Shown here: positions 86 to 53,756 of the stretch, piece after piece
Position numbering within the stretch: position 1 is the first letter of the stretch
How the letters are laid out: every line of letters begins with the position of its first letter
Origin: Acanthochlamys bracteata
Taxonomy: Eukaryota > Streptophyta > Magnoliopsida > Pandanales > Velloziaceae
DNA: 64,000 bases
Reading direction: 5' to 3'
Assembly (NCBI GenBank): GCA_019914995.1
Contig: CM034131.1
Coordinates: forward strand, 6,852,501-6,916,500
Notes under the pieces: model-generated
The model's database searches: none
What the model was told of the DNA's origin: nothing
The model's input: the letters and a program-made list of their open reading frames with translations, nothing else
Position numbers and translations under genes: made by a program

Positions 86-1905
86 TCAAACAATTTCAAT
101 CTTCATTCCACCAATCTTGACCTTTCTCTTCCCCTTCTTTGGCACAAGTGTCACCACAATGCTCTCATCTCCCTGAGCTTCCATGTCTTCCAATATCTCA
201 TCAATGCACATTCTCAACCGTGACTTCATTCTCCTCTTCCCATGCCGGATCCCGTTCGGCAACTTCACGAAACTTCCGGCTCTTTCCCGTCCTCCTGCTC
301 CTACTTCTCGGTAATGCTCCGCCGCGTTTACGTAAACATCAAACTTTACATACTCATCTCCTTCAACCTCAATATCATACACTACGAGCACTTCATGACC
401 ACTCTTCGCTGCCGATGATGACCACGGTGTCCTGTTCACTTTCGTACTCAACGCTGTCGAACCAAGGGTCAGCGGAAACGTCACTCTACGGACCTGATTA
501 AAATCAGAAGGCTTCGTACTCCTTGTAAGCTTTGGCCGAGCTTGAATCCAAGGGTTGGTCACGTTCATGTAAGTGTAGCGAAGCTTGATAGGGTCGAGAC
601 AGTCGCGGACTTTGATCCTCACCGGACGAGCGTTCTCGTCGATGAAAATGAAGGATGCATTCAGGAAATCGGGATCGGTAGGGTCGCCTCTTGGGCTGTC
701 GCCGAGGGTCTTCCAAACGGTCCATAAACGGTCGACGTTGGTATGATGTGCGTAGAATATCGGGTCACGGGCTGCTGTGTATAGGTTGATCATGTCCTCG
801 CCGATCCAGTCATGCATAGGGCCGTGCGGAGCATACTCTAGTGGACCAGAACCCAACGGGTCCTCGCCGGCACGGTATGCGCCACCGATGAACAAATCAA
901 CGTTCGGCGCATTTGTAATCATCTATGACAGTGAATAGATTACAATCATATGATCAATGCCGTTTTCATCCTCCAAAAAATAATAATGTATAGAGAAAAG
1001 TAAATTGAAGTATATGTTACCTGTCGATACATGAGCTTGAGGTTTGCCTCAATCTGCGCGTCGCCTCTTAATGTAGGGTCGTCGTCGTATTCGTGAAAGT
1101 CTAAGTCTACAATGGCCGGTGGCTGATGTTCCGGGTACCGGTTGGGATCATAGAGCGGCGAAGATTTGTTTGTGTAAAGTAAAGGAAATGTCATGGTGTC
1201 CGGATTGTCCCAGTTCCAAAACGGGAGGGCAAAGGTATCATCGCCGATCAGTTTCCCGAGTATCCGTTCAAAGAAGTACATAAAGCACCGATGCCATGGC
1301 AAGAACACCCACGATCCATGAGTGCTGAACTCTAAATCAGGAAAGCCTAGCTGACCATAAGAGCCTACACAGTATGAGCAATGAAAATTAGACAGCTGCA
1401 AGAAATTGCGAGGATCGTCGGCTGGCAAAGCCTTCATAAGTGAAAAAGCTTTTTCCAACTTAGCGATGTAGTCAGCGTCAACGAACTGAATAGCCGGCCG
1501 GACACGGAGAGGAGAGGACGGGTCCGGCGGGACGAAGTCTATGATTGCTTCGTTAGCGAGAGACTTGGGAGGGCAGCAAGAAGTCGGATCGACTCCGTCA
1601 GGTAGTTGAGATGAAGGGCCGCATTTCGTTAAATCAGGAATTGCGACCGGTGCTTTCAGTGTCGGCTTCTTCGTCGGAGCTGTTGCTGACTCATTGTCTC
1701 TCCAAGTAAAAGAAAATCTCCTGCCAACTTGACTACTGCTTAGTTCCCTCGGAAGCAGAAGATTGACTGCGCCGCGGAGAAACTGCCATGGCGAGTTACC
1801 ATTAGTGTTGGAGCTGTCATGAGGAGATATTATGGAGAATGAGAACGAGAGTGTCGCCGTAATGGCAATGGCGACCAGAGCAACAGCTGAGATTCGATTG
1901 ATCAT
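86..1905 (-). CDS. PPO: Polyphenol oxidase (catechol oxidase), secretory-type N-terminus
   Basis: Two coding exons, 1905-1021 and 922-86, joined in phase 0 across an intron of about 98 bases (donor CAG|GTAACA, acceptor CATAG|ATG), give 573 residues. The type-3 copper enzyme oxidises o-diphenols to quinones. CuA ligands are H175 (in HCSYC), H196 and H205, with C179 placed to form the usual thioether with H196. CuB ligands are H328, H332 and H354 (HGPMHDW, then AHHTNVDRLW). The loop before H354 is about seven residues shorter than I recall for sweet-potato catechol oxidase. The N-terminal Cys set (LTKC, TSCCPP), a DWL-type region and a KFDV domain (YVKFDVYVN) are present, so it looks intact. 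Residues 1-27 are a hydrophobic signal or anchor rather than the Ser-rich plastid transit peptide usual in this family, suggesting vacuole or apoplast (inference). The start is nearly identical to that of the divergent neighbour at 3468. Confidence 0.93.
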
Positions 1906-3467
1906 GGGTATGGCTCTCTATCTGCAGAGAGAGAGAGAGAGAGGGGAGATGGCCTGGTTTTGTGAAGGTGCTAGATGTGTTTGTCTTTCAGATGTATGCT
2001 ATAATAATCTGTAAATAGAAGTGGGGAAGAAGTACATAGATGAACAGTGATCGAAATTAGTCTGAAAACGATATTAAATTTTAATGTTTTTTACTTTGTT
2101 ATTTCCGAGGTGAACCAGTATTAAAAATAGAGCATGTGTTACATACATGATCATCACTCAAAAGATCAAAGGATCTTATGTTACATGCTTGACGCTGGCT
2201 GGTAGGTAGCAGATGTGTCTGTGACTTGTTCATTGGTTAAAACAAAGCTATAAAAGAGAGAAAACTTATGCTTGTGTTATTCCATCCTAACAGTAACTCA
2301 ATTTTGAGTAATTCATTTTCTGTTAAAAAAGAAAACATACTCTAACACGGGCACTGCATTTATAATCAACAATAATATTATCCAATTTTTCACTGAACAT
2401 CTCACCCTACTAATAAAAATGTATAATTTAACACAAACACACCATATATAGGTTCTCTTAAAACAGAGAGACGAAAGTTCCAGCAGAACACAAAGACATC
2501 TATGAACTCCAGCTACTACCCACACTGTTCCGTTCTTTGTATTTGTTATTATATGCTGAACTATAAGGACAGCAGGCGAGTCGGTAGATTTACTGATATT
2601 GTTAACCTCTTCATAAATGAATTTGCGTACTCTGAATTTAACCTCTCTATAAGATTTAAACACATTATTAATTAATGATATGTCCCCGAGATACAACCAC
2701 ATCTAGTTTCTTTGCTCTCTGATTCCTCTTCTGCAGTGACGAAGCTTTTTGCCAATGTCGATCTTGAGCAAAGCAAAAGTCCAGCAATAATCTCCGGTTC
2801 CTGGATTGCAAGCTTCAGCTTCGATATGCCAAGAAGGCACCAGTACTGGCTTAAGCGCTGGCGACGGCTGCGAAGAAATTTGAGAAAAGAAGCAGATAGA
2901 AGGGCGAATAAAAGAGGCCGACTACGGGTTGGTTCACCGCTGTTGTCATTTTGCCGACTTCAATTACAAGTTTGAACTCGAGGCTTGGTTTTTAGTAATT
3001 GTATTGCTAATTGATTTTTAAGAAGAGATCGTGTTCGAAATTTTTTAACTAAACATACATGTCTTCATGTGAAATATAAAGAATCTTTTATGTAAAATCG
3101 TGACGGCTATTAAAAACCCCACATGCTTAACACGAGCTATAACTACAAGGCTTTGGGCTGTATACCGTATATTTAATTGGGCCTTAGCAGTAGTCTGGGC
3201 TGCCCATTGTGTTGTATATTACTTCCCTACTAGGTGAAATGGCGGCAAAGAAACAAACAGGCGTTACAATCTATTTCTATTTTTAATAATATTCAAAAAG
3301 AACCTTGTATATACAACAAATAATAGTTGAACTTTCAGGATTATAGTAGATTCCTACACGTATCTCCTTCTCCTGGTTTATTAACAATAACAGCGCCGCA
3401 TCTCCATCTCCATTCATTTCACAACACTCTACCAAACTCCAAGCAATCGGAAAGCTAACTAGCTGCC
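1906..3467. promoter_or_regulatory. Divergent intergenic region between PPO and permuted NlpC/P60 gene
   Basis: This 1.56-kb stretch separates two start codons pointing away from each other. Read on the minus strand, a (CT)n tract ending in GCAG lies just before the PPO ATG (about 1921-1943) and looks like a 3' splice acceptor, so PPO may have a 5'UTR intron. A TATAAA-like box on the plus strand is near 2250. The ORF at 2712-2975 has an Arg-rich end but no family I recognise. No other gene is seen. Confidence 0.5.
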
Positions 3468-6400
3468 ATGATCAATCGAATCTCAGCCGTTGTTCTTATC
3501 ACAGCCGCTGCCGCTGTTGCGGCGCTGTTGTTTTTAATCACCATAACATCGCCGCACTTGGCAGCTTTGCTGAAGAGCAGCACCATCAAAGGTGGGGATG
3601 AAGATTTCACGCCATGGCGGTTACCAATCCGACCGTTGGATTTGTTGCCCTTGATGCCGAGACAGGTGTCGATGCCAGTGCTTCGGTCGCTACGTAGCGC
3701 GGTAGACCTTCTACCGACCTTCGTTGGCGCCGCGGCAGCTAATAATGGCGATAATTCCACCGTTCTTGAGTGGAAAGGCGCGTGTTTTTATAAGAATCAG
3801 GCTTGGATGGAGTTCCATAACAAGACTGGGTCGCGGTATGGCGGCGGTACGCTTCACATCAAGGTTTGTTTTACTGTGGTGTTATTTTCTTTAGGTGGAG
3901 TGAAGTGCCAGAAACTTGCATCTCTTAGTAAGAGGTCCTAATTGCGCTTGTTGTCATACCCACCGTAATGTGCAAAATTTCGTAGTATCTATAGTTTAAC
4001 ATGTAAGTGATTAAGATGTTTCATTTTGTAAATTGGGAAAAGAAAATTTTCTTTTGGAGAATTAGGAAATTGGATTTGTTGGAGGTGAAGGGGAAGATGT
4101 TAATTTAGCTGATTTCATTATGATTCCTTGAAATTATTTCAAGTTTGATGATAAGTGCTTGCTAACTTGAAATTGTCAGTATTGGTGTTCAGTTTGTCTG
4201 TGAAGTGGAAGTTAATTTAGCTAAGTTGCAATGAAGCTCTGAAAGGTTGCTTCAATAATGAAAAAAGTATAAGTTGAAACTAAGTGAGTACAAGGTGTTA
4301 TCATGAGTGCAAGGATTGGACTTGTTTTCTACTTTAATTATTCCTTGCACGCATAGATCCCTTACTGGGGAAGTGTTATGGTGATGAAAACTTGCATATG
4401 CTAAGTTGCTGAGGATAGTAGGTTAGTGCTGTTTTAGCTACAATTTGTACAGATTCTATTAGAGGCTTATACGAAGGATTATATACATGTGAAAGCAAAC
4501 AAGTAAATGTGTTATCTACCTATCTTAAATTTGACCATAATAGTACTAGTTGCTTCTACCATTCTTTTGCTATTTTCCGTTGGGCATGGGACTGATTTTT
4601 GTTGAGTGATTTTGGCAGTTGATTGGTTAACTATTTTCCAAAAAGATTTTGTATTTAACTACTTGCTATAGTCTGTTCATTAATTCATTTTGTACATGAT
4701 ATGTCAAATTCCTATATGAAGTATTTCTACATTAAAGCAATTCAAGTGACTAGCTTTTCTTTATTTTTCAGGTGAGCAAGGCTCACAGTTTGACATGTAT
4801 CGATCTTTATGTCTTTGCAACTCCATACCGTGTCACATGGGACTACTACTTCCTTGCTCGAGAACATACTCTTGATTTCAAAGAGTGGGAGGATGAGGCA
4901 GAGTATGAATATGTAGGCTACCGCTTCTGTTTTCCATCTACTATAAATTAACATCAGATGAAAGCATATGTCTATAATGACTTCATGACCTTTCTTTTGC
5001 AACTCAGGTGAAGCGTAATGGAGTTTCGATCTTCCTCATGGAGTCAGGCACCATTGGAACTCTACGTGCTCTATGGGATGTATTTCCTTTGTTTACGAAC
5101 ACTGGATGGGGCGAAAACTCTAATCTTGCTTTCCTTAAGAAGCATATGGGGACAGATTTTGATGTAAGGCCAGAGCCATGGGTTTCAAATATCACTGTTG
5201 ATGATATCCATTCTGGGGATTTCTTAGCCATTTCAAAGATTCGAGGAAGGTGGGGAGGATTCGAGACATTGGAGAAGTGGGTCACTGGGGCCTATGTTGG
5301 TCACAGTGCAGTCTGTCTCAAGGACTCTGAAGGAAAACTTTGGGTTGCAGAATCTGGGCATGAAGATGAGGAGGTTAAACCTCAGAGCTTCCTTCTGGAG
5401 TTCAGATAGCATCCTAGTTTCAGATTGTGTTTGTTGCAATATGCTTCAATCTTTCTGATTAGTTAGTTTGATGCTCTCTATCTTTTTGTAAGTTGCATAA
5501 GTTTAGTTCAATGATAGTTTTCTTTTTCATTCTAGGGAAATGATGTTATTGCTATATTGCCTTGGGAAGAATGGTGGGAGTTTGAGCTGACAAAGGATGA
5601 TTCTAATCCGCAAATTGCATTGCTTCCGTTGCATCCAGATATTCTAGCCAAATTCAACAACACTGCAGCTTGGGAGTACGCCAAAAGCATGTCAGGAAAA
5701 CCCTACGGTTACCATAATATGATTTTCAGTTGGATAGACACTATAAAAAATAACTATCCCCCACCTTTGGATGCCCATGTGGTAAGATCTCTTTAATAGG
5801 AAGTCTGTTGACTTTGAGATAGTTTCTCATGTGTAGGCTTCTTTGCACGTAATAGCGGTGTGAATCAGTGTGTTAGCAAGTGGGTTGTTTCTGTTTCCCA
5901 AACTTCTAGTTGTTATTCATGTGTTGGCTCTCTCTGTTTACTGCCCATTTTGTCATTCATGCGAGTGCTTTCTCTCTTCCCTTTATCTTTTGGTGACTGT
6001 CAGGTCTTTGGCTCATACTATTACACTTCAAATCATTATTCTAAGTGTGTTGAGAGTCCGGTTCCTTGGAGATTATATTTATCGATCTTTGGGTTCTAGT
6101 TATGGTTTATCCAGATATGGGTTAGGGCTGTTGTGGCTTCAGTAGTGGGCCACATCCCAAAAGTTGTACACCCTTATAGGTATGTGGAGTTATGAGTAGA
6201 CTTCTATGGGAGAGGCTGTTTATTGCAAAATAAGTTTCAAGAGGATTATTTAGGTTTAGAAGCCAGATGAGGTGTACTTACCTTCAGATGTGATTGGAAT
6301 GCATCAAGATTGAAGACTTCCTTTTATTGTAACATCTAAATGTATCCCTGAATCATACCGATTGTTCTCCTGAAAGTGCCAGTTTGATATTTGTCCTGGT

Positions 6401-8287
6401 ATCTGTTCCATATCTGTTGAGCCAAAAATGTAATTTGTAACAATACCATCTAATTTCTTGTATTATATGGTTTATTTTGGAAGGTATCCATGATTCTAGT
6501 TGTTACTTAATATGTTACGCTGCATCAAAATGACTTGCTTCAAAATAAAAGATCGAGCTTAAAGAACGTTTGAGATTTTGCAGTGTAGCATCATGATCTA
6601 TTAAGAAAGTAACATGTGGTAGTATTAGATTCTGATTTTGTGTAACATAAGTGCATCCGATCTAATGATTTCTAAGGTTTCTGGTGTTTGATCCTTGAGG
6701 CAGGTTCTCGTAACTTATCTCTATTGTATGGCTTGTAGGTTGCTTCTGTTATGACCATGTGGAGCAAGATTCAGCCTGCATATGCTGCTAATATGTGGAA
6801 TGAAGCCTTGAACAAGCGGCTTGGCACTGAGGTTTGTGGCTGTACACATGTGAAACTCCTATTCTTTTTACAAGTGCTCATGTATGTTAAAGAGCAAATG
6901 AGGACTATAAGCAGTATAACATGGATTCCTTAAAGAAACAAATGTGAAACTTTATAGAGATGTCATTGCTATTGTGTAAATCTTCCTTGATAGCGACAAA
7001 CCAAACTGCTACTCTTTAAGTTTGTTGTTTGACCATATAGGCACAGTGTGCTTTTGGAGAATATAGAAATATCTGGATTGTCTTAAACTTGCTGAATCCA
7101 TGTCCAAATCGATCACCGCTATAAAGACATCAGTTCGTATCATGAATGATTCATTATTGGATAATTCAAATTTTGTAAAGGACAGCACTAAGATGCTACT
7201 ATCAGATAAGATGGCGAATTGCATCAGTTCTTTCAGATTCTGTATATAGTTGGTCGTCATTGTTGATTGGTTAACTTCATCCTTAGATACCGAGTTGCTC
7301 AGTTTGTAGTTCCCTCCGTTGAAAGACATAATGACTTTCAACTTTTTGTACTGAAGTAGGATTAGTTATCCATTTAGTAGTGATGAGCTATAATAGATGG
7401 GACATTCTAACTTTGCAACTACCATTGGTCTCATTCAAATTCTAGTCTTTTGAGTTTGTTCCAAATTCTTTGGTATATTGTCATATTAGTTATCCTATAC
7501 TTCTTTTTACAGGGCTTAGATCTGCCGGATATTATAGTTGAATCGGAGAAACAGGGCTTATCTTTTGACAAACTCCTTACAATTCCTGAACAAGACAGGT
7601 GGGTTTATACTGATGGAAGGTCTACCTCTTGTGTTGCTTTCATACTTGAGATGTACAAGCATGCTGGGGTGTTTGAACCAATCGGCCACTCTATAGAGGT
7701 CACTGAGTTCACTGTAAGTTGATGAACGGCATCTTTAATTTCCTTCATTTTCATTTTAACCTGCATGCTTATTGTGCTATTCCATTTCTAACATTTGAGC
7801 ATTTTGATTAAGTCATCCCCTTTTGTGTAGAACAGAAATATATCCTAGCATATTTGCGATTCTCTCTTGCTGCTTGCATTGCTTGTGTCAATATTTTCGA
7901 GCTTTTAGAAGGCTTATCTGTACATGAAATTGTTGAATAAATATTGTTTCTTCTTATTTTATTTCTTCTTCATGAGCAAACTTCTGGTGAGTGGAAGTTA
8001 TGCGGTGCCATCTTTCTGCCAGCAGGTTTTAAGTACCCTATATATCGTTATAACCATTTCTTGTTTCGCAGATAAAAGATGCCTACACACTTAACATTTA
8101 TGAAAGCAACATGAGTCGGTTGCCAGAATGGTGCAACAAAGAAGATGAAGCGATGCTTCCATATTGTCAAATCAAGGGGAAGTACCGGATGGAACTGCCT
8201 TTCTACAACACCATGAAACCCTATCCGCACATGAATGAGAAGTGCCCCTCCCTTCCTCCCAACTATTTCAGGCCGAAAAATTGCTAG
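3468..8287 (+). CDS. Secreted/membrane-anchored permuted NlpC/P60 (papain-like) family protein
   Basis: Seven coding exons: 3468-3863, 4772-4912, 5008-5373, 5536-5781, 6739-6831, 7513-7713 and 8072-8287. All six introns are phase 0, and the product is 552 residues. The N-terminus (MINRISAV, then a hydrophobic run to about residue 28) is a signal peptide or anchor. A His in the motif YVGHSAVCL (H278), an acidic/His patch (AESGHED, about 294-299) and a Cys in STSCVAFIL (C454) occur in the order His-Glu-Cys. That order is expected for circularly permuted papain-fold proteins of the YiiX/LRAT/PPPDE group. The protein looks like a conserved plant protein normally annotated as uncharacterised. Hydrolase or amidase activity in the secretory path is inference; substrate and partners are unknown. 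Several WxxW-rich blocks (WEEWWEFEL) and NxT/S sites fit a lumenal or extracellular protein. It is head to head with the polyphenol oxidase. Confidence 0.85.
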
Positions 8288-9521: not shown

Positions 9522-11689
9522 CTATTCTTTCTTTGGAGGAATATGATTGAAGCCAGTTGCTATTTTGAAGATGTAAAATCCAGCCATAAGAGCACTGCAA
9601 TATGAAACATCTTGTCAGACGTCCATGTTGGGAAAGAAGATATTCATATTGAACAGAAGGGCACAGAATTGGAAGTCTAAGAAGAGGAGAAGATTTTGTC
9701 ACGATTCAACTGCCAATCCTAGATACGAAACATTAATCGATAGACATCCATTGGGTACGGAACCAGAAGTTTCCCTTTGAAGATAGCAGCGTCACAATTT
9801 AGATCAGCAATTGTAAACAATGAATGCCATATTCCAAATGATAAAAAGAAATAACAAAGAGGTTCTGTCATCAAACCTGAGTAAAGCAACTACACCAGCA
9901 GGCATTATCTTAGAGGTCTGGAGGTATCTCTGCCCCATGACAAATGTTAACGAGAGTGATATGACTGTTTCATAGGGAAAATCAAAGTAAGAATTATTTT
10001 TAGTATGTTAAAGTGAGTGAAATGACTGTTTCATAAGAAATATCAAAGTAAGAGCTTTTTTTAGGACCTAATCTTAGAAGAAACTGAAAATATCATTGTA
10101 AAGAGACAAATACCATAACTTAGCAGTCGTGGGATAAATAACAAGTATTTTCTACTAAATACCTTGTACTGTTCTTCGGCTCCATCATGTTACTAGGTTG
10201 GGGAAGAATAAGACAAACTTATAGCCACAGCAGAACGTCTAGAGTTTAAACAATTTCTACTAGTATTGTCATGTAAGGTTATGGAATCAATTATAGGCTC
10301 TATCTTAAGAGTCGCCAACTGCAATTCACTTAGGATCCCATTTATTTACTCTGTTAGCTGCAAATTTGATTGAACATTATTGTAGAATCTCACTTCAAAA
10401 ACTTGGGGTCTTGACATTGTGGGTCATCTTCCTCTTTGATTTTATACCGTAATTCTACACGTAGGACTTTCCCGGTTATGATGATGTAATTTGATAGCAT
10501 CAAGGTTCAGGTGGATCTTAGTAATCTTCAGCAGACAGAAACATTTTCTATTCATGACTGACAAAGATGTCCCATCTTGTAATTGAACAAAGAGAAATTA
10601 AAGGATTCTAGTTCAAAGGACTTGAAAGGGTTCCTTCTCCTTATGATAGGAGGCATGTGTTCTGCAAAAAATATATTGATTACATAGTATGACATGTTGA
10701 AGCTAATGACATAGGATAGTCACATAAGGGAGGATTGTTTCCTAGTAAGCTGGAGTCAACTTGATGCCTTCACTAGCTAATCTAGTACTTGAAACATCCA
10801 AAACAATCACAAATATATACGATAAAGATGCAATGATTTATTTCACTTTTAGCTACTGCAATATCAGTCGTAACTAAACTTTTACAAGTTAAATATGGTA
10901 CTTAATTCCTAGACCGTCCACCTTGCCATTCTATTTGAATGGAGAGCAAATTTTATGACTTTGCACCTATGATATGACTTTTACAAGTCAAGCCATTTCT
11001 TAAAACCAGTCATTTCTAACAGCACAGAGACATGCAAACGCAGAAGAGAGATCATGCTGCAAAAGATAACTAATCCAAGACAAAACTATAAATATATGCC
11101 AACTGAATATTTTGAGCAGAAGAGAGATCATGCTGCAAAAGATAACTAATCCAAGACAAAACTATAAATATATGCTAACTGAATATTTTGACAAGCAAGC
11201 AGAAGCAAATCATCAGACCAATAACAAGTACTAGTCAGATCCAGAACAAGCTTCTAACAGTGATCGGAACGCTAAACAAATCATAGTAAAGCTAACTGAA
11301 TTTGAGATCAGCACTCCAATTCCAAGTTTTACAAAATTCAAAAGATCCAAGACATTAGAAGAAATTAACAATGAGCTGATCACCTAGAAACTATCCCATC
11401 ATTATTTCACCGATTTCGAAAGAACAAAACAAGGCAAAACAAATTCCAAAGTCCAAAAACAAATGACAACGAGAAGTTCAGAATACTAACTGGTCTCAAG
11501 GAAGAAAGCAAGGTAAGAATTCTGGCGCTTCTCGAAAGCCTGAAGACTAATATATCCAGCAAGTATAAGAAGTAAACCAGCACCACCGCCGCCGGCAAGA
11601 GAAGTAGTGCTACCTTTCCGAGCATAGCCAACGACTCCGCCGGCCATCACCATCATCCCATAGGGGATCGTGAAGCAGAAGTCGTGCAT
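9522..11689 (-). CDS. TMEM14 / FATTY ACID EXPORT-like small membrane protein
   Basis: Three coding exons, 11689-11491, 9964-9877 and 9594-9522, join to 119 residues, the usual size of TMEM14/FAX5-7 proteins. The start MHDFCFTIPYG, the Gly-rich first helices (GGVVGYARKGS, LAGGGGAGLL), the segment VMGQRYLQTSKIMPAG and the tail GFNHIPPKKE match the family as I remember it. Four short hydrophobic helices are expected. Plant relatives are linked to fatty-acid export from plastids or to other endomembranes; members without an N-terminal transit peptide, like this one, are usually placed outside the plastid (established for the family, not shown here). A splice acceptor (TTTGCAG) 9 bases before the ATG implies a 5'UTR intron. 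Intron 1 (about 1.5 kb) contains two tandem duplications. It shares a promoter region with the DTW gene. Confidence 0.9.
9952..10075. repeat. 61-base tandem duplication covering a splice acceptor
   Basis: The block containing ATGACTGTTTCATA begins at 9961 and again at 10022, followed in both copies by a similar ATCAAAGTAAGA stretch. The first copy holds the acceptor of exon 2 of the FAX-like gene (minus strand ATGAAACAG|TCAT); the second copy carries the same acceptor sequence 61 bases upstream. Confidence 0.8.
11040..11191. repeat. 76-base perfect-length tandem duplication
   Basis: Copies at 11040-11115 and 11116-11191 both begin GCAGAAGAGAGATCATG and differ at one base (GCC versus GCT near the end). 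They lie in intron 1 of the FAX-like gene. The near-identity means a recent event. Confidence 0.95.
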
Positions 11690-12075
11690 ATCTTCAACTG
11701 CAAATTCAAAGGAATCTTGAAGGGAATCGTTCTGAGATCAATTCAATCAATGATCACCTGATGAGATTGAAGAGCTCAACTGCCCTGCTGCTTTGGAAAA
11801 GTTAGAACTGGTCTATTGTTTCCTTCCCGGTTACGAAGTTTGTTGGGTTGATTATTATAAGGAAGAGAATAGGAACGTGGTTGCCACCCGATTTGCTGAA
11901 AAGTCAAGTTGGACTTGGGCCCATTAAAGAATTCTGGACTAAGCCCATCAAGAAGCTCATTATTAACTGTTTCACACTTCATTGATCAACCAGTCCATAA
12001 CTCCATATGTAAAACCCAGGTTTTAGCTGTGGTCTAATTGCTTCATCATCAAACCCACGCTTCAAAATCTAGGCA
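11690..12075. promoter_or_regulatory. Bidirectional promoter between FAX-like and DTW genes
   Basis: Only 386 bases separate the two divergent start codons. Site II-type elements are seen: TGGGCC at 11916-11921 and AGCCCA (reverse of TGGGCT) at 11942-11947. These are common in promoters of plant housekeeping genes. No clear TATA box lies at a fitting distance on either side. Confidence 0.65.
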
Positions 12076-13446
12076 ATGGGAAGCTGCGTGGACCCATCAC
12101 CGCCGCCTTCATCATCGGCGAAGTCTCGGCGAGTAGTTTGCGCCCGGTGCACGAAGCCTGAGCGGCTGTGCCTTTGTGCACGCATCAAGCCACCGTTGCC
12201 TCTAGATAACCCAATCCCGCTCACGATTCTACAGCACCCGCTTGAAGCTTCCCACCCGCTTAATTCCACTCGCGTCGCTCGACTCGGGCTCAACAAAATC
12301 GACGTTGTATCTGTTAGTGAAGTTAACTTCCACGCGCATTTTATTATCCGCCCGCTTGATTCCCGAGAAGAAACGGGAATTGGTGTTGGTTTTCAGAAGC
12401 CTGGCTCCGATAGAAATTCGAATTTGATCAATGGTTGTGAAGAAACTGAACGGGTTGGTGTTGGAGATGAAGGTTTTGATCGTGTTAATTATAAGAAGCG
12501 AGGCTCGCTAGAAACATTAATTCTTGACAAAGGTAGCTGGAATGGAGGTCCTGATGAAAAGTTTAGTTTAGTGACCACCAACTATGATGCAAATTTGGAT
12601 AAGAAAAATGTTATTGGATTTGAAGACAATGAATGCGATGGAGATTTTGAGACAATCAACACTCAGACTTTGTTTTCTGGCAGTTCAGTTCAGGAAAGTT
12701 TGAATGGACATGAAAAGCCTGAATGTGGCTTGCAGGAAAGCTTCTCTGATCCTGTTAATGTTGAGGGTATGTTGGATGAGCTTGATGCAAGTCAAGAAGC
12801 TATAGTAAATGTGGCAGTTCTATCTGAATTGATGGATTCAGATGGAGATTATGAGTTCCAAGAGACATTACCGAAATTCAAAGTGAAGTGCTCTAGTAGT
12901 AGGATATTTCTGAGAATAGAGCGTGGCGTGCAACCTGACATGCGCGGCGCGGCAGCCACTTCGGTTGGTAGAACTGTTGCGAGAGATGGCTTTTTGGTCA
13001 AGAAGGTGCACAGGGAACGGATCGGATTGACCGATAAGTTTAAGGACTTTGTAGAATTTGGGATTGCTGTGCCCCCAGGATCAGTGCTCCTGTACCCGAG
13101 CGACAAATCCATTGATATGAAAACTGTGGACTTTAAGGTGAGGCATTTGATTGTGTTGGATGGGACGTGGTCTAAGGCAAAACGGATATACCATGAGAAT
13201 CCATGGTTAGAGCTTCTTCCGCATGTTAAGTTGGATGTGAAGAAGGAGAGTTTGTATAGCGATGTGAGGCATGAGCCGAAGACTGGATACTTGTCAACCA
13301 TAGAGAGTATTGTTTGTGCAATGAGGGCACTGGGGGGCAACATTAATGGGTTCGATGAGCTTTTGGATGTGTTTGAGTCTATGATTGTGGATCAAAGACG
13401 CTGCAAGGATGAAAAATTCGCAAGAATTGCCATTTCTCGAGTATAA
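12076..13446 (+). CDS. DTW domain-containing tRNA-uridine aminocarboxypropyltransferase
   Basis: A single open exon of 456 residues. The family moves the 3-amino-3-carboxypropyl group of S-adenosylmethionine to a uridine of tRNA (TapT/DTWD1/DTWD2). The N-terminal Cys cluster CARCTKPERLCLC (residues 22-34) and the following substrate-side segment (ILQHPLEASHPLNS) are typical. The name-giving motif appears as DGTW (about 362-365, VLDGTWSKAKRIYHENPW), and the C-terminal signature RHEPKTGYLSTIES follows. Between about residues 90 and 270 lies a poorly conserved acidic stretch that splits the domain, which fits the longer DTWD2-like plant forms. The first ATG with the Cys cluster close behind was taken as the start. 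The Site II promoter suggests constitutive expression. No intron signals are needed. Confidence 0.92.
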   Translation: MGSCVDPSPPPSSSAKSRRVVCARCTKPERLCLCARIKPPLPLDNPIPLTILQHPLEASHPLNSTRVARLGLNKIDVVSVSEVNFHAHFIIRPLDSREETGIGVGFQKPGSDRNSNLINGCEETERVGVGDEGFDRVNYKKRGSLETLILDKGSWNGGPDEKFSLVTTNYDANLDKKNVIGFEDNECDGDFETINTQTLFSGSSVQESLNGHEKPECGLQESFSDPVNVEGMLDELDASQEAIVNVAVLSELMDSDGDYEFQETLPKFKVKCSSSRIFLRIERGVQPDMRGAAATSVGRTVARDGFLVKKVHRERIGLTDKFKDFVEFGIAVPPGSVLLYPSDKSIDMKTVDFKVRHLIVLDGTWSKAKRIYHENPWLELLPHVKLDVKKESLYSDVRHEPKTGYLSTIESIVCAMRALGGNINGFDELLDVFESMIVDQRRCKDEKFARIAISRV

Positions 13447-50180: not shown

Positions 50181-53100
50181 TCATTTGTCTTCGAGAAGAG
50201 GCTGCTTCTTATCCTCCCACTTGCTCAATCTGTTTTCTGCTACTTTGACCTGTGTTTTGACATTGAAAACATTAGTGATATACTGGAGTTACTAGAATAT
50301 AGTGAAAGTCAGGTAGATCTTTGTTCCAAATTTTGCGAACATGGTGCCATCTGTGGCTGGAATTGAACCCTCTATGTCGGGGCGAAATATTATTCTTGAA
50401 GGAAATTCGATGTTTCTTTTCTTGAATTTGATTCAGGCATGCAAGATGTTCCTTTATAGAATTTCTTTTCTGTCATGTCTTAGGTAGATTGAATAAGTAA
50501 CAGACAAATAAGTAATTATATCTCACCTTTGAATTTGGTAGGTATGGCTTTTTATTTCTGTTTCACATGTTTACAAGTTTGTCAGCTAGTAATCAGACAC
50601 TATAAGTGCCACCTATGACCACCGAATTTTCTAATTATATGTTCCTGGCTATTCTCTTTTTTATCTATCAAGTCATGATATGATGTTACTTAGAATAAAC
50701 TTCTACAATCTACATAACTTGAAGGGGGTTTCTTTTCTTTTTGAGTAATCGTTGGTTTATCCGCGCAGCAATTTTGTAGACAAAGAACTGCAAGAGTTGA
50801 AAATCTAGAGCCACACAGGTACATACTATGTAGTTTTTGGTATTTATAGTTAATGGACTAAATCCTGATGCAATGTTATGAAACACATTGCTTCCATGAT
50901 AACTTATATTTTCTTAGTTTTGTTTTGTTTTGCCACTAACTCCCAATAGCTTACGTTCTGCTTTCTTTGAAATTTGGTTTCTTGCATGCTTGACATGATC
51001 GTCGTCTTATGAGAACTACAAATTCTCCTTGTACATCTTTTAAGCCTACGTATTACTATTCATTCTCATATCTAACTGACATGTACTTCAATAAAATTGT
51101 ACTTTTGCGATTCTCCTACAGGTGCATAAGAAGTATAACTTACCTCTTTGTTCCAGTTTGTTCTGAAAGTGACCCAAAGAAGTATCAGAGTCTGCAATGT
51201 TGTTCCTCCTATCATTCCAGTCCATATTCCCTGTCATGAATGTTCTCAAGTTTGTTGGCTATGCGCTTTGTTGTTTATGATTTCATGAAGACATGTATGA
51301 ATTTCATCAGAAGTGTTCTTCTTACCTTGGCTCCCAGGTTAAAATAGAAACCTAGTAGACAACCTAGAGGAACTCCAACAACATAGTAACAGCCAACATT
51401 AACATACGCAACAAACGCTTGCCATCCGCAACCAACAGCAACGCCTGAGTTCACAAAAAAAGGTTCAGAACATCATTAACTAGTTACAAAAGAGAGCGAA
51501 GTGATACTGAGGAAGTTCAAATGTTTACCTGAGAGTACTGGTTGTATTCCATTGAGGATAATGGTGAGTCCGAGAAGCGGGCAGAGATCGGACACTGCAC
51601 GAGCAACCTCTTCTCCTTCTGTGAACATGTAACTGAGGACGTCTCGGAAACATAGGATTACAACTGCCAAGATAACTGACACAATGAAGGATAACAAAGT
51701 CACCACCACGACGGAGAACGCTGCAGATTTCGGGTGTGCAGCACCGAGCTCGTTGCTAACTCGCACACTATAGTAGTAAAATCAAGCAATCAGTTGAGAT
51801 TCAGTGTTCAGAAATGCATACAAACTTAGAGCTGCCGTCTATAAATGTTTAACTTTAGCGTGAAGTTGAACATGTATTATTGCTTGAACAATATATGTTT
51901 TATAGGCTGGTTGTAGATAAATTCAGTATGTCAATTAAAAAGTTTACCTTGCCGCTGCATTGAATCCGACGGAGATCATGAAGACCCAACCGGAGATTGT
52001 CATGCTGCATCCGCACAAACACCAAATCAAAGACTATTAATCAACAAAAAGAATGAAGTTAAGGAAAATAATTAAGACTTCAAGCAGATAATTCTAGCGT
52101 AATTTGTTCTGGTAACTCTTGACGTTATTCTGATGCCTAACATTGGTAAAATATCCCAATCCACTAACTGCTGTTTTTATCAGGAAGCAACTCAGCATGC
52201 TAGCCAGACATACATGAAGACAAACTAAAACTGAAGCTGTACAAAGAAACGTTTGTGATGAGTATGGTCTAAACAGAAAGGAAGATATGAGAAATTTTAT
52301 CTTAATTGACTTATTATGGACTCATGAATTATTGAGAACTTTTAAGTCCATATGACTCATCTCTCTAAAATTTTTGGCTCATTACAGAAAACGACCAAAG
52401 GACTAACTACGAAGTCACCGCTTTCTTTCAATTCATTTATGCTTTTTCTTTTATTCTTGCGTGTCTAAATCTACACCAAATTTGATGATCAAAATTAAAA
52501 TTTGCATTATTACTGTTACTCAAGAACAAAAAAAACAAAGTAAAGAGCATATGATTAGAACTTGTTCCAATGAATTTCATTTCAGAATGATAATTTGGCA
52601 TGACCAAAACTAACGAAACTAATAGACTTGATTGCATTTTAATATTAATTACGATTTAAGTAAATTTTCTTACCACACACTGAGGGAATCTAAGGCAAGC
52701 TGAGGGTTAGGAAGCAGACCGGCGATGAGTACCAGAATCTGAAAGTACCAAGTTTCCAAGCACAACATCACCGCCGAAGCCGCCGACAGTTTCAAAAACC
52801 CCCACAGACCACTGAACGCCGACATCGAAAACCCTCGCCACGTTCTCCGGCACCGTTCACTCGTTACAATGTACAGAAACTGCGCGCCGACGATAATCCA
52901 CCACGATATGCTCAGCATCAGAGATGCACCAAGTAGACCTAATCCTAGTTTGTAAACAACTACCCAGCTCAGAAGCAAGTGTACACATAACGTCGCCGTA
53001 GATATGTAGGCGCTCGGAGCGACGATGCTTTGTGCTTGTAAGAACTTTTGGATAGGAAAGTTTGCAGCGTACGCGAAAATCTGCGGTATAAGACCGTAGA

Positions 53101-53756
53101 CGAAGATTGCAGCTGCCGATGCAATCTCCGGTGATTCACCAAGTAGTATTAGTAATGGTTTCGAGAAGCCGTAGATGACTGCAAGCGGGACGCCGGTTGC
53201 CATTAAGAGTACAGTTGATCTTTGCAGGTAGACTCCTAGCATCTCGTAACGATTTGCACCGTATGCCTGACCGCATAACGTCTCCACTGCACTTCCCATT
53301 CCTAGCTGCAAATTGTAAACCAAAAATTAATCTTATTATCAAAATGAAGAAAAACCAAACATATATGTAGGTTTGCGGTAGTACCATGAGACCGTATGCG
53401 AAGACTTGAATGCCGGTGTTCCCTAACGAGGCAGCGGCGAGCTCAAGATTACCAAGATGACCGGAGAAAATCTGAGTGGACATGGACATCAAGTAATTGA
53501 TCATGTAAACAATCACAGCAGGTGCAGCAAGACGAAGAAGCATGCCAAACTCTATGCCCATGGCAAGCCGATGACGGTGAAACCATGCCATTTTTTCATC
53601 GCCAAGTATGGCTTCCATCTCGTCGCTGACTTCTTCACCGTGCTTTTCATCAGTGATCATCGCCGGTGGCGTTGATGTAGGCAACCGGTTCTGGTTGTCT
53701 GATAGGATGCTGCTGCTAGTAAGCAAAGGTGTCCTTGAATTAGATTCAGTATCCAT
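50181..53756 (-). CDS. MATE efflux transporter, DETOXIFICATION 40-like
   Basis: Seven coding exons, 53756-53385, 53305-52674, 52004-51948, 51767-51529, 51444-51326, 51230-51144 and 50249-50181, give 524 residues. MATE carriers export organic compounds (flavonoids, alkaloids, acids) against H+ or Na+ across the plasma or vacuolar membrane. A hydrophilic N-terminus of about 75 residues precedes twelve predicted helices. Family hallmarks are [87 protein letters not shown] and GIWTGMIGG, in correct order. The end ([16 protein letters not shown]) is a typical short cytosolic tail and comes from a separate 69-base exon after an intron of about 0.9 kb. The ATG at 53756 was chosen because the frame above it opens only with GTG. 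Substrate cannot be told from sequence. Confidence 0.94.

What the first reader, a model, noticed from the sequence alone, without database searches (positions are those of the whole stretch)
1818..3560. Two unrelated enzymes, head to head, carry the same secretion signal
The polyphenol oxidase (minus) and the permuted NlpC/P60-type protein (plus) share no domain, yet both begin MINRISAV, continue with a hydrophobic run and then (I/T)SPH, and have PW..R and LLP motifs further on. At the DNA level the first 20 coding bases (ATGATCAATCGAATCTCAGC) are identical, and a second match follows 70-odd bases later (CCATAA.ATC.CC.CA). The best reading is that an inverted duplication or 5'-end capture copied one gene's signal exon onto the other, giving the oxidase a secretory route in place of a plastid transit peptide. 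A shared promoter could also make the pair co-expressed.
Basis: partly seen in the sequence, partly recalled or inferred. Interest (0 to 1): 0.85.

Follow-up and report, generated by a model that had tools for sequence, protein, structure and literature searches.

The report
Shared N-terminal leader in neighbouring plant genes
Two side-by-side, oppositely oriented plant genes for unrelated proteins begin with what looks like the same copied membrane-targeting leader, a probable case of one gene borrowing its neighbour's address label, though which gene gave it and when could not be determined here.

Summary
A polyphenol oxidase (PPO; minus, 2 exons, 573 aa) and a 7-exon gene (plus, 552 aa) stand head to head, 1562 bp between start codons. 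Their first 20 coding bases are identical; a 31-nt inverted repeat (94%) begins 2 bases before each ATG. The 5' regions align with score 62 against a maximum of 39 in 2000 shuffles. At codon level similarity is strong to about codon 30 and weaker, depending on scoring, to PPO codon 56 / plus codon 68. Common ancestry of the leader is likely; local copying between neighbours is the simplest account. Not supported: a 'signal exon', a recent origin of the whole segment, a shared promoter, and 'permuted NlpC/P60' (no supporting family or structure match). That copying gave the PPO its secretory route is doubtful: published work describes multispecies clades of PPOs with signal peptides. No plant orthologues were reachable, so donor, direction and age stay open.

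The parts
1021..1905 (-). PPO exon 1 (885 nt); residues 1-84 are presequence, matches to PPO chains in the PDB begin at residue 85 or 86
   Evidence: the frame given to one search ran on into the intron after residue 295
86..922 (-). PPO exon 2, after a 98-nt intron (1020-923) between the CuA and CuB regions; rest of the tyrosinase domain, PPO1_DWL and PPO1_KFDV
1819..1905 (-). PPO codons 1-29 (alignment columns 1-30, one gap), hydrophobic N-terminal leader alike to plus gene codons 1-30
1738..1818 (-). PPO codons 30-56, weaker colinear similarity (SS, SPW, LLPR, S); tested from codon 31 on
1877..1907 (-). arm of the 31-nt, 94% inverted repeat; begins 2 bases before the ATG
3466..3496 (+). other arm of the inverted repeat
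3468..3557 (+). plus gene codons 1-30, hydrophobic N-terminal leader
3558..3671 (+). plus gene codons 31-68, weaker colinear similarity to PPO codons 31-56
3468..8287 (+). plus gene, 7 exons (3468-3863, 4772-4912, 5008-5373, 5536-5781, 6739-6831, 7513-7713, 8072-8287), 552 aa, no family assigned; exon model made by hand from splice sites and reading frame, no transcript seen
1906..3467 (.). 1562-bp region between the start codons; no established similarity between its two ends

Best explanation
The 5' coding segments of two head-to-head neighbours share ancestry: a stretch of about 90 nt, possibly 170-200 nt, beginning at the start codon was copied from one gene to the other in inverted orientation (inverted partial duplication or template switching, then fusion in frame). 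Shown: statistically strong, colinear similarity at the start of the two coding sequences. Inferred: both leaders, with one arginine followed by a hydrophobic run of roughly 20 residues, send their proteins into the secretory pathway as a signal peptide or signal anchor, so that the PPO would be in the ER, vacuole or cell-wall route and not in the thylakoid. Inferred: the copying is old, because same-residue codons in columns 9-30 agree no more than chance, while the first 8 codons were held or rewritten later (23 of 24 nt). Direction is unresolved.
For: DNA score 62 vs max 39 in 2000 shuffles; coding bases 1-90 alone 0 of 1000 shuffles; 31-nt 94% inverted repeat; codons 9-30 alone 0 of 500 shuffles; extension to PPO codon 56 / plus codon 68 with 11 of 2000 shuffles and 0 of 361 real windows under the codon plus BLOSUM score. 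The highest 19-residue hydropathy windows of both proteins lie in the leader (KD 2.26 and 2.82; windows starting after residue 40 reach at most 0.6 and 1.0). PPO windows starting at residues 50-80 reach at most KD -0.01, so the hydrophobic thylakoid-transfer part of plastid PPOs (recalled) is missing.
Against: No flanking similarity outside the coding start is established (436 of 1000 and 50 of 1000 shuffles), which a recent inverted duplication would leave. tblastn with the PPO as query gives only E 3.6. The extension beyond codon 30 fails with nucleotide-only scores (170 of 2000 shuffles and 56 of 361 windows; 86 of 1000) and with a protein-only score (546 of 5000). Hydrophobic leaders share composition. 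No orthologue was seen, so neighbour-to-neighbour copying is inferred from adjacency alone.
Confidence: 0.62

Rival explanations
1. Old homology plus a recent short gene conversion: the leaders were copied long ago and a tract of about 28 bp at the ATG was later rewritten from one inverted arm to the other.
For: Identity is 23 of 24 nt in codons 1-8 but 41 of 63 in columns 9-30 (Fisher P 0.0027); same-residue codons 2-8 agree 6 of 7 against 2.16 expected (P 0.0035), those in columns 9-30 agree 4 of 10 against 3.18 (P 0.40).
Against: The boundary at codon 8 was chosen after seeing the data; the contrast in codon agreement alone is P 0.08. Constraint on residues 1-8 (8 of 8 identical against 10 of 21, P 0.012) explains part of it.
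Confidence: 0.2
2. Both genes took their leader independently from a third gene or a repeated element elsewhere in the genome.
For: Not excluded: the rest of the genome could not be searched.
Against: No third copy was found in the 64-kb window (exact 20-mer; tblastn of both N-terminal exons at E up to 10); adjacency of the two carriers would be a coincidence.
Confidence: 0.1
3. Convergence or chance among hydrophobic leaders.
For: Leaders share composition; protein evidence beyond residue 30 is weak.
Against: 20 identical bases including codons for N, R and S, a 94% 31-nt inverted repeat, one of only two repeated 20-mers among 2618 ATG sites.
Confidence: 0.05

Closest known systems
PPOs with signal peptides (Eudicot I clade with PtrPPO13, Monocot III clade; Tran et al. 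2012, PMC3472199: abstract, passages and sections 7 and 8 seen)
   Same: N-terminal hydrophobic leader in place of a plastid transit peptide; intron-containing gene.
   Different: PtrPPO13 is reported with a 164-bp intron at its 5' end; the window PPO has none there, only a 98-nt intron between CuA and CuB. Leader sequences of those clades were not seen, and clade membership was not tested.
Presequence acquisition by duplication of an existing targeting signal (mitochondrial genes moved to the nucleus; recalled; only search listings seen)
   Same: A targeting leader copied from one gene onto an unrelated one.
   Different: Here the leader looks secretory, the two genes are direct inverted neighbours, and no intron marks the junction.
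YaeF/YiiX-like permuted papain-fold enzymes (PMC3142127, passages seen; that text holds neither 'plant' nor 'Arabidopsis')
   Same: By eye: GHSAV early and SCVAF late in the plus protein, a His-first, Cys-late order.
   Different: No NlpC/P60 or permuted-papain family among matches at E up to 5 in Pfam (one row, DUF4179, E 0.16, below its cut-off) or NCBIfam (none), and no such chain in the PDB at E up to 1.

Membership tests
Plant polyphenol oxidase | tyrosinase core, DWL and KFDV domains | tested here: met
   PF00264, PF12142, PF12143 all above cut-off; PDB match to polyphenol oxidase 5ce9, E 9.1e-75
Plant polyphenol oxidase | HxxxC (CuA) and HxxxH (CuB) motifs | tested here: met
   HCSYC and HGPMH read by eye in the translation
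Plastid-type PPO | bipartite transit peptide with a hydrophobic thylakoid-transfer part before the mature start (recalled) | tested here: not met
   windows starting at residues 50-80 reach at most KD -0.01; the hydrophobic stretch lies at residues 5-26; no targeting predictor was available
Secretory PPO clade (Eudicot I / Monocot III) | position in a PPO tree | not testable with these tools
   no plant genome or protein collection was on hand beyond PDB chains
Permuted NlpC/P60 (YaeF/YiiX-like) | profile match to the family | tested here: not met
   none among matches at E up to 5 in Pfam or NCBIfam; HMMER's filters drop most matches above about 0.1
Permuted NlpC/P60 (YaeF/YiiX-like) | papain-like fold with the catalytic Cys near the C-terminus | not tested
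   no structure was predicted; only the motif order was read by eye
Signal-exon shuffling | intron at the junction of the transferred segment | tested here: not met
   the leader lies inside a 396-nt and an 885-nt exon of the hand-made models

The most novel reading that the evidence does not exclude
An exon-internal leader, copied between head-to-head neighbours without an intron and then kept alike at its first 8 codons by conversion between the two inverted arms, keeps two unrelated enzymes in the same cell compartment.
Probability: 0.15. Interest if true: 0.75.

Novelty: new variant of a known kind. Interest (0 to 1): 0.48.

Why it matters
[quoted passage not shown] Neighbours that share a leader would show a source for such a switch in either direction, and comparison across related genomes could date it.

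Tried and rejected
Rejected: chance match; separate signal exon; shared flanking or promoter repeat (not established); recent duplication of the whole segment (codon agreement at chance in columns 9-30).

Led nowhere: own genome not held. No relatives of plus exon 3 or of the PPO exon-1 frame in viral contigs (3 and 1 pattern matches, none confirmed), nor of the plus protein in genome contigs (4 pattern matches, none confirmed) or plasmids (residues 99-552, E up to 0.1). The 20-mer has no exact match in viral contigs. No Rfam family at gathering score and no tRNA in the window. Paper search for MINRISAV, MINRIS or NRISAV inside words: 21 papers, 20 listed, the 20 showing no occurrence of MINRISAV or NRISAV. 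Search on PPO with head-to-head, bidirectional promoter and like terms: 367 papers, 15 listed, none of the 15 holding 'polyphenol oxidase'. Further searches seen as listings only. A possible vacuolar sorting motif in the plus protein (LPIR, residues 52-55; resembles NPIR, recalled) was not tested and is short enough to be chance.

Full report
Setting. The window looks like plant nuclear DNA: it holds a PPO with the chloroplast-PPO domains DWL and KFDV, a seven-exon gene, and open frames with DTW and MatE domains. No own genome is held, and the collections at hand hold no plant genomes, so this report rests on the window itself, Pfam, NCBIfam and PDB sequence searches, and papers.

The two genes. 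PPO: minus strand, exons 1905-1021 and 922-86, 573 aa, 98-nt intron. It matches PF00264, PF12142 and PF12143 above cut-off. Its best PDB matches are polyphenol oxidases (5ce9, 2p3x, 6els), aligned from residue 85 or 86 on, so residues 1-84 are presequence. Searches used the two open frames, of which the first runs on into the intron. Plus gene: seven exons by my own splice-site reading, 3468-8287, 552 aa. No family can be assigned: Pfam's only row at E up to 5 is DUF4179 at E 0.16, below its cut-off, on residues 9-41; NCBIfam has none; the PDB search at E up to 1 gives three fucose-binding lectin sequences, E 0.0036 to 0.11, all on residues 464-502, which I take as chance.

Is the match real? 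Yes. Local DNA alignment of the 5' regions scores 62 against mean 19.9, sd 2.5, max 39 in 2000 dinucleotide shuffles. The repeat finder reports a 31-nt inverted repeat, 94%, with 1558 nt between the arms. Of 2618 ATG-anchored 20-mers on both strands only two are repeated, the other being a direct repeat at 11054/11130.

How far does it go? The leaders align over 30 columns with one gap, 18 of 29 residues identical; codons 1-8 agree at 23 of 24 nt, columns 9-30 at 41 of 63. Columns 9-30 alone score 57 at codon level and 0 of 500 codon shuffles reach it; on plain DNA, coding bases 29-90 score 21 and 9 of 1000 shuffles reach it. Beyond codon 30, a first codon-level test gave 5 of 500 shuffles; five scoring schemes then gave 11, 39, 42, 170 and 21 of 2000 shuffles, and 0, 0, 0, 56 and 0 of 361 real-sequence windows, the 170 and 56 belonging to the nucleotide-only score. 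Protein-only local alignment gave 546 of 5000 and, with a cheaper gap, 481 of 5000. Plain DNA alignment gave 86 of 1000 for coding bases 91-300 and 38 of 200 for 91 to the end. I read this as a probable but unproven extension to PPO codon 56 / plus codon 68. Upstream of the ATGs, 436 of 1000 (100 bp) and 50 of 1000 (400 bp) shuffles reach the observed score, so no upstream homology is claimed. tblastn is asymmetric: E 1.8e-5 with the plus exon-1 protein as query, E 3.6 with the PPO as query.

Age. Where residues agree, codons agree 6 of 7 times in codons 2-8 (2.16 expected from the two genes' own codon use, P 0.0035) and 4 of 10 in columns 9-30 (3.18 expected, P 0.40). So most of the leader looks old, and the first 28 bp look younger or constrained. 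The contrast in codon agreement by itself is only P 0.08, and the boundary was chosen after seeing the data.

Function. The three most hydrophobic 19-residue windows of each protein start at residues 5 to 8 (best KD 2.26 and 2.82); windows starting after residue 40 reach at most 0.6 and 1.0. With one arginine before the run, this fits a signal peptide or signal anchor; no predictor was available, so cleavage and final compartment are not known. The PPO has RR at residues 62-63, but no hydrophobic stretch follows before the mature start, so the thylakoid route of plastid PPOs is unlikely. Each protein has 5 N-glycosylation sequons, which is compatible with, not proof of, secretion.

Known background. 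Tran et al. 2012 (PMC3472199; abstract, passages, sections 7 and 8 seen) report a well-supported multispecies Eudicot I clade (poplar, grape, Argemone, columbine) whose members have signal peptides rather than transit peptides, and a Monocot III clade likewise. A review (PMC8517187, passages seen) states that about 75% of plant PPOs have a plastid transit peptide and only a few a signal peptide, with vacuolar or Golgi location shown for three. A PPO with a secretory leader is therefore not new, and the window PPO may belong to such a clade (not tested); the local copy may then have run from PPO to the plus gene. PtrPPO13's 5' intron is absent here. Head-to-head plant gene pairs with intergenic regions of 1258 and 1429 bp were studied as bidirectional promoters (starts of abstracts), so a 1562-bp gap does not exclude a shared promoter, but nothing here supports one.

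Verdict. Observation confirmed and slightly extended; interpretation partly supported. What is unusual is an exon-internal leader shared between inverted, unrelated neighbours. What is missing is any orthologue.

Noticed in passing
window 2672-2991, minus strand: Between the two genes, overlapping open frames (46, 72 and 95 aa, stop to stop), with a 98-aa frame on the plus strand of the same stretch. The 46-aa frame reads like a hydrophobic leader ending AAVASA, and the 72-aa frame, in another register, has a Cys-containing stretch; the two peptides give no Pfam match. It could be a decayed small gene or chance.
   Followed up: partly
window 11054-11149: Direct repeat, start-to-start 76 bp, with an identical ATG-anchored 20-mer; seen in the control.
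   Followed up: no
window 3621-3653 and 3690-3716, plus strand: The plus protein carries LPIRPLDLLPL and LRSAVDLLP close together; FLRGAVNLLLP of the PPO resembles both, and LPIR resembles a plant vacuolar sorting motif (recalled). Not tested.
   Followed up: no
window 12073-13446, plus strand: Open frame of 457 aa with a DTW domain (PF03942, E 4.7e-36).
   Followed up: partly
window 52673-53326, minus strand: Open frame with a MatE domain (PF01554, E 8.9e-28), a transporter.
   Followed up: partly
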